A stretch of DNA of 64,000 bases from Leuconostoc carnosum (GTDB lineage Bacteria; Bacillota; Bacilli; Lactobacillales; Lactobacillaceae): assembly GCF_014207505.1 (NCBI RefSeq), contig NZ_JACHGL010000001.1:1-64000 (forward strand), in the 5' to 3' direction. This document shows, in pieces, positions 8,716 to 11,618 of this stretch. The notes beneath the pieces are model-generated. The model did not search any database. It had not been told where the DNA came from and saw only the letters and a program-made list of their open reading frames with translations. Each line of letters starts with the position of its first letter. Positions within the stretch are counted from its first letter, which is position 1. Made by a program: the position numbers and the translations under genes.

Positions 8716-8728
8716 AATAAAAAACTGA

Positions 8729-8773
8729 AAGGCGGATGTTGACTAACAATAAGTTAATCAACATCCGCCTTTT
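8729..8773. terminator. Bidirectional terminator between convergent genes
   Basis: Nineteen-base stem with one mismatch; the left arm begins AAGGCGGATGTTGA. It lies between the hydrolase gene (+) and the AhpF-like gene (-). Confidence 0.85.
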
Positions 8774-8807: not shown

Positions 8808-10505
8808 TCAACCAGCAGTTTCAATAGCAGTAACAATTTCTTCCAAAGATTGACTACCAAAAATAACATTTTCATTTTGATTAATCAGCATAGCTGGTAC
8901 ACTCATAATATGATGGGCTTCACGTAACTCTGGGAACAGTTGTAAATCAATCATTTCTGCTGACACGTTGGGGTTAATTGCAGCAATGTGCTGGCAAGCA
9001 GCCACAACGTCTGGACAGAAATGGCAAGTCAATGATATGCCAATTTCAATTTGTGTTTTTGGCAAATGCTTAATACGTTCAATAAGTTGTGTATCAATTG
9101 TCTGTCCTGGACCAGCCATATTATAAACAGCTAGTACCAATGAATTCAATTCATGACCTGTGGGAATACCACTAAATTTAATACCAGTTGGTTGGCCGTC
9201 AGTCGACACTAAGCTGAAATTAGGGAGGTGTGTCACATGCCATTTGTCTAACATTTCATCTGTAGCAGCTTCTATTTGCAGTGTCATGTGCGGACTCAAT
9301 TGGCTAAATTCTGTTAAAAATGAAGACAATTCATGACTTTTTTCTGAAGCGTCAGTCAATTGATGCAAAATAATATCATGATTCAGTTTGTCAAAAATTG
9401 GTTGTAGTTGTTGTACCAATTCATTGGTAAACCATTGACCTTTATGCATTGGTAGCTGGGTATCATGGTCAGATATTGTGCTTGAAGGACCAGATGTTGG
9501 TTTTGATTCGGTTTTTTTAGTAGCTGTTGACCGGGTAATAGGTACATGCAGGCGATGCTTTTGCGCAGAAACGTAAATTTCAGCGCTTGTTGCGGCACTA
9601 GCACCATCGGCAGCAGCAGTTACAATTTGACGTAATGGTTTAGAGATCACATCTCCAGCTGCGAACACACCTGGAATATTGGTTTGCCCTTGCTGGTCTG
9701 TGATAATATATTGGTCATCATCTAGTATGATGGTGTTTTTGAATAATTCAGTTTGTGGATCAGTACCAACATAGATAAACATACCAAACGTATTATCATC
9801 TTTAGTCACATGATAGCTTGTTTCTTCATGTGTTTTATTATTAATAAAAGTAGCATCGGTCAGATAATTTTGTCCAGTAACTGATTTTACCTCGCTATTT
9901 GGCCAGATAGTAATATTTGGATTTAAACGTGCGCGGTCAGCGGTTAATGGTGGGCAGGTGAAATCATCAGAACGCATAACTACTGTGACATGACGTGCAA
10001 AACGTGTGAGATAATCAGCTTCTTCAGCAGCAGCATAGCCGCCACCAATGACAAAGACTTCTAAACCACTGAAAAGTTCACCATCACACGTTGAACAGTA
10101 GGCAACACCACGACCACGAAAATCCTGTTCACCTTTGAATCCGATTTCATGTGGTTTGGCACCAGTAGCAATAATGATGCTACGTGCATGGTACGTCGTT
10201 GTTTTACCAGTTACCGTTTTAATATCTTTGGGATCAAAATTATAATCAACTACGGTATCAAAAGTGAATTTGACGCCAAAATCTGTGGCCTGTTGTTTCA
10301 TCTTATTAACAAGCGTTGTACCGTCTATCGTTTCGACAGCGGGGTAGTTAGCGACGGTTGAGGTTGTTGTTACTTGGCCGCCAATTTGGTCGCCTTCAAT
10401 GATCAGTGTATCCATTGTTGCACGACCAGCGTAAATGCCTGCTGATAATCCAGCTGGACCACCACCAATGATGATTGTGTCATAAATGTGGGGTTCTGTC
10501 ATCAT
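8808..10505 (-). CDS. AhpF-like flavoprotein with reversed domain order (thioredoxin reductase module then AhpF N-domain module)
   Basis: A 565-residue protein encoded 10 nt after ahpC. Residues about 1-315 form a thioredoxin-reductase-like module: FAD motif GGGPAGLSAG, redox centre C137-S-T-C140, NAD(P)H-binding GGGYAAAEEA and the final AAGDV motif. A Ser/Thr/Lys-rich linker spans about 315-350. Residues about 355-565 resemble the tandem thioredoxin-fold N-terminal domain of AhpF, with a second CxxC at C494-H-F-C497 followed by a cis-Pro SVPAM. In classical AhpF this module is at the N terminus, so the order is permuted. The expected job is passing NADH electrons to AhpC. The start ATG (10505) has AAGGAG in front. 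Confidence 0.88.
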   Translation of the reverse strand: MMTEPHIYDTIIIGGGPAGLSAGIYAGRATMDTLIIEGDQIGGQVTTTSTVANYPAVETIDGTTLVNKMKQQATDFGVKFTFDTVVDYNFDPKDIKTVTGKTTTYHARSIIIATGAKPHEIGFKGEQDFRGRGVAYCSTCDGELFSGLEVFVIGGGYAAAEEADYLTRFARHVTVVMRSDDFTCPPLTADRARLNPNITIWPNSEVKSVTGQNYLTDATFINNKTHEETSYHVTKDDNTFGMFIYVGTDPQTELFKNTIILDDDQYIITDQQGQTNIPGVFAAGDVISKPLRQIVTAAADGASAATSAEIYVSAQKHRLHVPITRSTATKKTESKPTSGPSSTISDHDTQLPMHKGQWFTNELVQQLQPIFDKLNHDIILHQLTDASEKSHELSSFLTEFSQLSPHMTLQIEAATDEMLDKWHVTHLPNFSLVSTDGQPTGIKFSGIPTGHELNSLVLAVYNMAGPGQTIDTQLIERIKHLPKTQIEIGISLTCHFCPDVVAACQHIAAINPNVSAEMIDLQLFPELREAHHIMSVPAMLINQNENVIFGSQSLEEIVTAIETAG

Positions 10506-10515
10506 GGCTCCTTAA

Positions 10516-11085
10516 TTATAATTTACCAACTAAGTCAAGACTTGGTGCAATTGTGTCTTCACCTGGATGCCAGTTAGCAGGGCAAACGCGATCACCATGT
10601 TCGGCCACGAACTGTGCAGCTTCTAAGGTACGTAGAATTTCTTCAGCGTTACGACCAATACCCATATTATTGATTGTGTATGACTGAATTTTACCTTCAG
10701 GATCAACAATAAATACTGCGCGGTAAGCCAATCCAGCATCTTCATCTAAAACATTGAAGAAGCGTGCTAGTTTACCAGCAGGATCGGCTAGCATAGGGTA
10801 CTTAACTTTAGCAATTGTATCTGTTGCTTCAGCCCAAGCTTTGTGTACAAATTCACTGTCTTCTGATACAGAGTAAATTTCAGCGTTAATATTAGTGAAG
10901 GCAGCGTAGTGATCTGCTAAATCACCGAGTTCTGTTGGACATACGAATGAAAAATCAGCAGGGTAGAAGAAATAGACACCCCACTTACCTAATGTATCTT
11001 GCTTGGTCACTTCTGTGAGTTCACCTGCGTGATAAGCATTCACTTTAAAATCTGTTACTTCTGTATCAATAAAATTAGTTGGCAT
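10516..11085 (-). CDS. ahpC: Alkyl hydroperoxide reductase subunit C (AhpC-type peroxiredoxin)
   Basis: A 189-residue typical 2-Cys peroxiredoxin reducing hydrogen peroxide and organic hydroperoxides. The peroxidatic Cys is C49 in SFVCPTEL and the resolving Cys is C168 in VCPANW. Length and the GGIG-like loop region (INNMGIGRN) fit the AhpC/Prx1 group. The Shine-Dalgarno AGAGGAAAG precedes the ATG. It leads a two-gene operon with its likely reductase and has a PerR-box-like site in the leader. Confidence 0.96.
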   Translation of the reverse strand: MPTNFIDTEVTDFKVNAYHAGELTEVTKQDTLGKWGVYFFYPADFSFVCPTELGDLADHYAAFTNINAEIYSVSEDSEFVHKAWAEATDTIAKVKYPMLADPAGKLARFFNVLDEDAGLAYRAVFIVDPEGKIQSYTINNMGIGRNAEEILRTLEAAQFVAEHGDRVCPANWHPGEDTIAPSLDLVGKL

Positions 11086-11104: not shown

Positions 11105-11158
11105 TTATAATGATTCTAAACTATCTCTAGTATACAGTGTTTTGAAATGAAAAATCAA
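11105..11158 (-). promoter_or_regulatory. ahpC promoter with PerR-box-like operator
   Basis: On the minus strand a -35 TTGATT (11158-11153) and -10 TATACT (11134-11129) are 18 nt apart. Just downstream, 11105-11119 reads TTAGAATCATTATAA on the minus strand, differing at one position from the PerR consensus TTATAATNATTATAA. Its place near +4 to +18 fits repression released by peroxide. No perR gene is in the window; the assignment rests on the motif and the target gene. Confidence 0.68.
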
Positions 11159-11193: not shown

Positions 11194-11222
11194 TTGACTG
11201 ATTGGTCAATAAATGATATAAT
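11194..11222 (+). promoter_or_regulatory. tetR promoter with overlapping inverted repeat; transcript predicted leaderless
   Basis: TTGACT (11194-11199), a 17-nt spacer, and TATAAT (11217-11222) make a near-perfect promoter. TTGAC-6 nt-GTCAA (11194-11209) is an inverted repeat covering the -35 and is a likely operator for the TetR protein itself. Only 6 nt separate the -10 box from the ATG at 11229, so transcription should begin at or next to the start codon. Confidence 0.7.
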
Positions 11223-11228
11223 TTATTT

Positions 11229-11618
11229 ATGGGAAGAAAAAGAAATTTTAATCAAAATGACATTATCGATAAGATGGTACAAGTATTCATTATGCATGGC
11301 TATGAAGGGACATCATTAGATGATTTAGTTCAAGCAACCGGCTTGTTACGTGGTAGTTTGTACAGTGCATTTGGTAGTAAACAAGGCATGTTTATTGCGT
11401 CATTAGAGAATAGTTTACAACAACATGCTGATGACGACATCGTTTGGCAGCTCTTATTGGTTGCCATGTTGGAATTAACCTCAAGAAGTGAGGCAGTCAG
11501 AAAGATTGTAAAAGATTGGTATGACACAAATTCCCATGAAGATATAGCATCAGAGTTAGGGCATCAATTGTTAGCACATAGTGGTATTTTTGAAGGAGAA
11601 GATAATCATGGAAAATAA
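11229..11618 (+). CDS. Short TetR/AcrR-family regulator
   Basis: A 129-residue regulator. The N-terminal DNA-binding part (about residues 8-55) is typical of TetR proteins: helix 2 MHGYEGTSLDDLVQATG, then LRGSLYSAFGSKQGMF as recognition helix. The ligand-binding C-terminal part is only about 70 residues, against about 140 in normal TetR proteins, so the usual drug-binding pocket and dimer interface are reduced. No Shine-Dalgarno is present and the promoter geometry predicts a leaderless mRNA. It overlaps the next gene by 11 nt, indicating coupled expression. The inverted repeat over the -35 suggests self-repression. The signal it senses is unknown. Confidence 0.8.
   Translation: MGRKRNFNQNDIIDKMVQVFIMHGYEGTSLDDLVQATGLLRGSLYSAFGSKQGMFIASLENSLQQHADDDIVWQLLLVAMLELTSRSEAVRKIVKDWYDTNSHEDIASELGHQLLAHSGIFEGEDNHGK

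What the first reader, a model, noticed from the sequence alone, without database searches (positions are those of the whole stretch)
8808..10505. AhpF-like reductase with its two functional modules in reversed order
The thioredoxin-reductase module (CSTC 137-140) is N-terminal and a module resembling the AhpF N-terminal tandem thioredoxin domain (CHFC 494-497) is C-terminal, joined by a Ser/Thr/Lys linker. Classical AhpF has the opposite order. A TrxR-then-Trx fusion is known in Mycobacterium leprae, but with a single thioredoxin fold. Adjacency to ahpC suggests it is the dedicated AhpC reductase, so electrons must pass from the CSTC centre to the CHFC centre through a different hinge.
Basis: partly seen in the sequence, partly recalled or inferred. 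Interest (0 to 1): 0.55.

Follow-up and report, generated by a model that had tools for sequence, protein, structure and literature searches.

The report
Known reversed-order AhpF, paired with AhpC
This gene encodes a peroxide-defence helper enzyme whose two parts are joined in the opposite order to the textbook version; that arrangement is real but already catalogued, with part of a close relative solved by crystallography, so the finding is ordinary apart from some details of how the two versions replace each other.

Summary
The minus-strand ORF 8808-10505 (565 aa) is a thioredoxin-reductase module (CSTC 137-140), a disordered linker and a C-terminal pair of thioredoxin folds (CHFC 494-497), just downstream of ahpC. 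The architecture is known: NCBIfam TIGR03143 (692.9 bits, cut-off 687.65). The C-terminal half matches crystal structures of Enterococcus faecalis AhpF residues 353-560 (6il7, 5h29; Z 34, rmsd 1.0 Å), and a 2025 review notes the order in Fusobacterium. Support added here: in 118 Lactobacillales genomes canonical AhpF occurs in 30 and the reversed form in 9, never together, and all 39 carry AhpC. ahpC lies upstream in 87 of 89 loci, the window's included. The AhpC tree splits by partner type, 100/100. Cys184, beside the NAD(P)H loop, is present in 89 of 89 members (biased sample) and 4 of 5 further loci, but is Ala in all 38 AhpF/TrxB compared. Best explanation: the dedicated, probably NADH-using, AhpC reductase of a peroxide-response operon. 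Fusion is favoured over permutation of AhpF (99/96), but the latter is not rejected (AU p = 0.156). No activity was tested.

The parts
8808..10505 (-). Reversed-order AhpF-type reductase gene (565 aa), TIGR03143 member
9546..10505 (-). Thioredoxin-reductase (FAD/NAD(P)H) module, about residues 1-320
   Evidence: Pfam/NCBIfam matches; model and PDB matches
10086..10097 (-). CSTC redox centre, residues 137-140; both Cys present in 89 of 89 reversed-type, 17 of 17 AhpF and 21 of 21 TrxB rows
9954..9956 (-). Cys184, beside the NAD(P)H loop; Cys in 89 of 89 reversed-type rows, Ala in all 17 AhpF and 21 TrxB rows; Ala in 1 (L156) of 5 further reversed-type loci
9435..9545 (-). Ser/Thr/Lys linker, about residues 321-357, lowest confidence at 332-350
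8811..9434 (-). Tandem thioredoxin module, residues 358-565 (folds about 361-464 and 472-564; first fold has no CxxC)
9015..9026 (-). CHFC redox centre, residues 494-497
10516..11085 (-). ahpC (189 aa), 10 bases upstream of the reductase gene, same strand; TIGR03137 269.1 bits (cut-off 272)
11105..11119 (.). PerR-box-like near-palindrome, one mismatch to TTATAATNATTATAA (consensus recalled), upstream of ahpC
   Evidence: the window scan alone does not exceed chance
11129..11158 (-). Promoter-like site for ahpC (TTGATT-18-TATACT), consensus match only
8728..8772 (-). Terminator-like hairpin (20-pair stem, T run) after the reductase gene

Best explanation
The gene encodes the dedicated reductase of the AhpC peroxiredoxin made from the gene just upstream. 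It is a reversed-order counterpart of AhpF (family TIGR03143). NAD(P)H, more likely NADH, reduces FAD in the N-terminal module. FAD reduces the CSTC disulfide (137-140). CSTC passes the electrons across a flexible linker of about 40 residues to CHFC (494-497) in the second thioredoxin fold of the C-terminal module, and CHFC reduces oxidised AhpC so that it can destroy another peroxide. The two genes form a unit, probably switched on by peroxide through PerR. Shown here: the anatomy, the folds (as a model matching crystal structures), the conserved cysteines, the gene pair, and the replacement of canonical AhpF across sampled Lactobacillales genomes. Inferred: the electron route, the use of NADH, the reduction of AhpC and control by PerR.
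For: Nearly full-length TIGR03143 match above cut-off. Model with a TrxR module and two thioredoxin folds, matching 6il7/5h29, whose titles call them E. faecalis AhpF. Exactly two CxxC in 88 of 88 relatives. ahpC upstream on the same strand in 87 of 89 loci, the window's included, gaps 0-281 bases; one of the two misses has only 93 upstream bases. In 118 Lactobacillales genomes AhpC occurs in 40 (E <= 1e-50), canonical AhpF in 30 (E <= 1e-120), the full-length reversed form in 9; comparing the lists, no genome has both reductases, all 39 have AhpC, and one (G086) has AhpC with neither. 54 AhpC rows split into 35 and 19 exactly by partner type, support 100/100. The TrxB loop HRRxxxR is not kept: position 179 is never Arg in 89 rows. 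PerR-like site upstream of ahpC: 38 of 82 loci with at most 2 mismatches, against 48 of 1640 shuffled stretches.
Against: No activity, partner or cofactor was tested. The match to TIGR03143 is only about 5 bits above its cut-off, and AhpC is about 3 bits below its own. The PerR-like site is not beyond chance in the window taken alone (3 found with up to 2 mismatches, 2.1 expected); 25 of 82 relatives have only sites with 4 or more mismatches, the start positions used were approximate and the shuffles keep single-base composition only. One reversed-type locus (L105) has 4001 upstream bases and no ahpC. The mutual-exclusion count is not corrected for relatedness of the genomes.
Confidence: 0.9

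Rival explanations
1. It is a general thioredoxin-system protein (a fused thioredoxin reductase plus thioredoxin-like carrier) that reduces many disulfide proteins, AhpC being only one client.
For: The TrxR-module sequence is close to thioredoxin reductases (best PDB match 7aaw, 1.6e-69), and four stand-alone TrxB rows fall nearest its family (99/96 in the careful tree).
Against: The genome has a separate TrxB-type gene (G000:C2:87374-88294, with CAVC and the HRR loop). ahpC is beside the gene in 87 of 89 loci, and the reversed form tracks AhpC in the 118 genomes.
Confidence: 0.07
2. On origin, not function: it is a true permutation of canonical AhpF, whose N-terminal module moved to the C-terminus.
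For: The AU test does not reject one clade of reversed-type and AhpF TrxR modules (p = 0.156). The tandem module shares CHxCP and GHE features with the AhpF N-domain.
Against: In the careful tree the reversed-type TrxR module groups with four TrxB rows at 99/96 and with all TrxB against AhpF at 91/69, on a root with a very long outgroup branch; log-likelihood is 8.74 worse when it is held with AhpF. The AhpC partners form separate clades. The tandem-module tree is a three-way split of reversed, AhpF and PDO that cannot be rooted.
Confidence: 0.25
3. The C-terminal module acts as an independent chaperone or oxidase rather than as electron carrier to AhpC.
For: The tandem fold is shared with protein disulfide oxidoreductases (1a8l, Z 28.9, rmsd 1.7 Å over 209).
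Against: Only one CxxC remains in the module, as in AhpF; 14 of 17 AhpF and 63 of 89 reversed-type rows have CHxC. Gene neighbourhood and mutual exclusion point to AhpC.
Confidence: 0.02

Closest known systems
NCBIfam TIGR03143, AhpF_homolog (putative alkyl hydroperoxide reductase F subunit)
   Same: Nearly whole length, module order, score above the curated cut-off, neighbouring ahpC
   Different: Nothing that matters; the score is near the cut-off, and two other full-length Lactobacillales members score below it (684.2 and 666.6 bits)
Enterococcus faecalis V583 AhpF (PDB 5h29, 6il7)
   Same: Tandem thioredoxin module numbered 353-560, i.e. C-terminal; 52% identical, rmsd 1.0 Å; CHFC and an extra Cys ten residues after its first Cys (Cys504 here)
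   Different: Only the C-terminal module is in these entries
Canonical AhpF (TIGR03140; PDB 1hyu, 4o5q)
   Same: Same two modules, one CxxC in each, ahpC neighbour
   Different: Modules in the opposite order; mostly CPHC instead of CSTC; Ala instead of Cys184; separate AhpC clade, Bacilli only sampled
NTRC (plant/cyanobacterial NADPH-thioredoxin reductase C) and the M. leprae TrxR-Trx fusion
   Same: TrxR first, thioredoxin part behind; NTRC reduces 2-Cys peroxiredoxin (starts of abstracts seen in listings)
   Different: A single thioredoxin fold (recalled; M. leprae wholly recalled)
Protein disulfide oxidoreductase (TIGR02187; 1a8l, 1j08)
   Same: Tandem thioredoxin fold and CxxC in the second fold
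   Different: Stand-alone; 9 of 12 rows have a CxxC in both folds, TGA read as Cys

Membership tests
TIGR03143 AhpF_homolog | Whole-protein score above 687.65 bits over nearly the full profile | tested here: met
   692.9 bits, profile 3-554 of 555
TIGR03143 AhpF_homolog | TrxR module first, tandem thioredoxin module second, one CxxC in each | tested here: met
TIGR03143 AhpF_homolog | Beside ahpC in genomes without canonical AhpF (description recalled) | tested here: met
Canonical AhpF (TIGR03140) | Score above 502.9 bits, tandem module N-terminal | tested here: not met
   345 bits; two stretches, the best covering residues 6-308 only
AhpF function (AhpC reductase) | NADH-dependent reduction of AhpC | not testable with these tools
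   needs an enzyme assay
Thioredoxin reductase TrxB (TIGR01292) | Score above 343.45 bits, about 300 aa | tested here: not met
   326.2 bits over residues 8-311 only
Protein disulfide oxidoreductase (TIGR02187) | Score above 185 bits | tested here: not met
   118.8 bits over residues 362-563

The most novel reading that the evidence does not exclude
Bacteria hold two separately descended AhpC-reductase systems that exclude each other genome by genome, each with its own AhpC lineage. The reversed type carries a nearly invariant fifth cysteine (Cys184), next to the loop that grips the NAD(P)H adenosine, which acts in catalysis or as a redox switch on cofactor use.
Probability: 0.2. Interest if true: 0.45.

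Novelty: already known. Interest (0 to 1): 0.18.

Why it matters
It suggests that the same electron chain (NAD(P)H, FAD, CxxC, CxxC, AhpC) works with the carrier module on either end, and that the two designs are interchangeable but were not found together in the genomes sampled. It corrects any reading of this locus as a new architecture. The family-wide Cys184 is a concrete thing to test.

Tried and rejected
A Ser/Thr difference in the AhpC active site tracking the reductase type was looked for and not supported: 50 Ser and 40 Thr in reversed-type AhpC, 5 Ser and 14 Thr in AhpF-type.

An independent origin of the reversed TrxR module is favoured but not shown. The careful tree groups it with four TrxB rows at 99/96 (read off the tree), yet the AU test gave p = 0.156, the outgroup branch is very long, and the tandem-module tree is a three-way split that cannot be rooted.

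Its two search patterns cover the CSTC region and the GGYAAAEE region near Cys184, so the 89 of 89 count for Cys184 comes largely from a biased sample. Of the 13 reversed-type loci other than the window found by profile search (L007-L014 and L154-L158), 12 have Cys and L156 has Ala. A crude motif check missed the Cys of L011 because that frame was read with an N-terminal extension; the alignment shows it.

The first structure model (8 sequences, pLDDT 70.4) was set aside for the second (35 sequences). Foldseek's 50 rows shown were all thioredoxin reductases or NTRC; the tandem module's matches come from the second look. No coordinates were available, so the place of Cys184 in space was not measured.

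Rows dropped: two AhpF rows (L117, L125), one TrxB row (L033) and four PDO rows (L135, L139, L140, L152) for failed frame extraction. Two rows labelled PDO (L150, L151) are really one reversed-type and one AhpF protein; they fell with those groups in the tree and are counted as PDO. Trees used 35 of 89 reversed-type rows, 34 after dropping near-copies and 35 of 90 reversed-type AhpC rows. AhpC was not extracted from 4 of 113 loci by motif (L062, L078, L088, L105), though tblastn found it in L062 and L078.

Papers: nine searches listed no held paper on the E. faecalis AhpF structures; several listings were cut (for example 20 of 41, 15 of 47, 8 of 67), so absence is not claimed. Those structures are known here from PDB titles. 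Passages only were read of PMC12288474, PMC10880999, PMC8300647 and PMC12729873.

Full report
What is there. The minus-strand ORF 8808-10505 encodes 565 aa and starts 10 bases after the end of ahpC (10516-11085, 189 aa). Profile matches give a FAD/NAD(P)H module at 8-301 and a thioredoxin domain at 485-558, with the two-fold protein disulfide oxidoreductase profile covering 362-563 below its cut-off. The AlphaFold2 model from 35 aligned sequences, the window's included (mean pLDDT 87.7, pTM 0.76), shows two thioredoxin folds at about 361-464 and 472-564 and a poorly ordered linker at 332-350. So the order is TrxR first, tandem thioredoxin second, the opposite of canonical AhpF.

What it is. 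The protein matches NCBIfam TIGR03143, AhpF_homolog, at 692.9 bits against a cut-off of 687.65. Its C-terminal module matches PDB 5h29 (9.7e-62) and 6il7 (1.8e-60) by sequence and with Z 34 and rmsd 1.0 Å by fold. The entry titles name them as the NTD_N/C domain of E. faecalis V583 AhpF and a C503A mutant of that AhpF, and the aligned residues are numbered 353-560, that is, C-terminal. The Salmonella AhpF N-terminal domain (1zyn) follows at Z 28.8, rmsd 1.5 Å. A 2025 review of Fusobacterium nucleatum (PMC12288474, passages read) says in a figure legend that this domain is at the C-terminus in F. nucleatum AhpF and remarks that the different modular organisation suggests AhpF formed twice; one sentence of its body text gives the ends the other way round. 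The architecture is therefore known and in print.

How widespread. In 118 Lactobacillales genomes the TIGR03143 profile is matched over its full length in 9 (7 over the cut-off, 2 under). In 299 Bacillota genomes, 6 including the window's own have a match at E <= 1e-140. The alignment scan of titled genome records returned the best 80 loci of 453 confirmed, from lactobacilli, Leuconostoc, Oenococcus, enterococci, Bifidobacterium, Bacillus and relatives, Clostridia, Synergistota and a Treponema. Its highest-identity hits to the window protein are Leuconostoc inhae (73%) and L. fallax (67%).

Link to AhpC. ahpC lies upstream on the same strand in 87 of 89 loci, the window's included; of the two misses, L088 has only 93 upstream bases and L105 is a real miss. 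In the same 118 genomes, AhpC was found in 40, canonical AhpF in 30 and the reversed form in 9. Comparing the lists, no genome has both reductases, all 39 with either have AhpC, and G086 has AhpC with neither. Taking the 40 AhpC genomes as independent, no overlap would have a chance of 3.7e-8, but they are not independent; within the genera labelled g20 and g31 both kinds occur in different species. A tree of 54 AhpC proteins splits into 35 beside the reversed form and 19 beside canonical AhpF with 100/100 support, although only Bacilli were sampled for the AhpF side. AhpC and reductase thus appear to travel as a pair.

Residues. Exactly two CxxC motifs are found in all 88 relatives. The TrxB loop HRRxxxR, named as an NAD(P)H-site motif in PMC10880999 (passage) and recalled as the grip on the NADPH 2'-phosphate, is not kept: position 179 is never Arg in 89 rows and 183 is Thr or Ser in 75 of 89. 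This suggests, but does not show, NADH use. Cys184, next to that loop, is Cys in 89 of 89 reversed-type rows and Ala in 17 of 17 AhpF and 21 of 21 TrxB rows. Most of these 89 come from a scan whose patterns lie near this site; five further loci from a profile search gave four Cys and one Ala (L156). Cys504 is Cys in 55 of 89, Ala in 32, Ser in 2; its E. faecalis counterpart is the residue changed in 6il7.

Regulation. A site with one mismatch to the PerR box lies at 11105-11119 upstream of ahpC, within an inverted repeat with 11-base arms. By itself this does not beat chance in the window. Upstream of ahpC in relatives, 38 of 82 have a site with at most two mismatches against 48 of 1640 shuffled stretches; 25 of 82 have four or more. 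A 20-pair terminator-like hairpin follows the reductase gene at 8772-8728. The picture is a two-gene peroxide-response unit.

Origin. The TrxR module of the reversed form groups with four stand-alone TrxB rows (86 in the quick tree; 99/96 in the careful tree) that sit in glycine-reductase-type clusters by my reading of their neighbours, and with TrxB as a whole against AhpF at 91/69 on a very long outgroup branch. Holding reversed-form and AhpF together costs 8.74 log units and is not rejected (p-AU 0.156). Separate fusion is the better-looking reading but not established.

Verdict. What may be worth a second look is Cys184 and the clean replacement of one AhpC-reductase pair by the other.

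Noticed in passing
window 9954-9956 (Cys184) and loci L007-L014, L036-L115, L154-L158: A cysteine beside the NAD(P)H loop marks the reversed-order family: Cys in 89 of 89 rows and in 4 of 5 further loci, Ala in all 38 AhpF and TrxB rows compared. No paper search was aimed at it.
   Followed up: partly
window 11229-11618: Divergent short TetR-type regulator (129 aa, TetR_N match 5.6e-11) sharing the 143-base gap with ahpC; an imperfect 10-base inverted repeat lies at 11208-11227.
   Followed up: no
L015, L016, L017, L018: Stand-alone CATC thioredoxin reductases next to a thioredoxin-like gene and, by my reading, glycine/betaine reductase genes are the nearest TrxB rows to the reversed-order family.
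   Followed up: partly
L105 3863-5614: A reversed-order reductase of 584 aa as read, with an unusual N-terminal extension that looks to me like a helix-turn-helix and no ahpC upstream; possibly a start-site or assembly artefact.
   Followed up: no
G086: A Lactobacillales genome with AhpC but neither canonical AhpF nor a full-length reversed form at the thresholds used.
   Followed up: no
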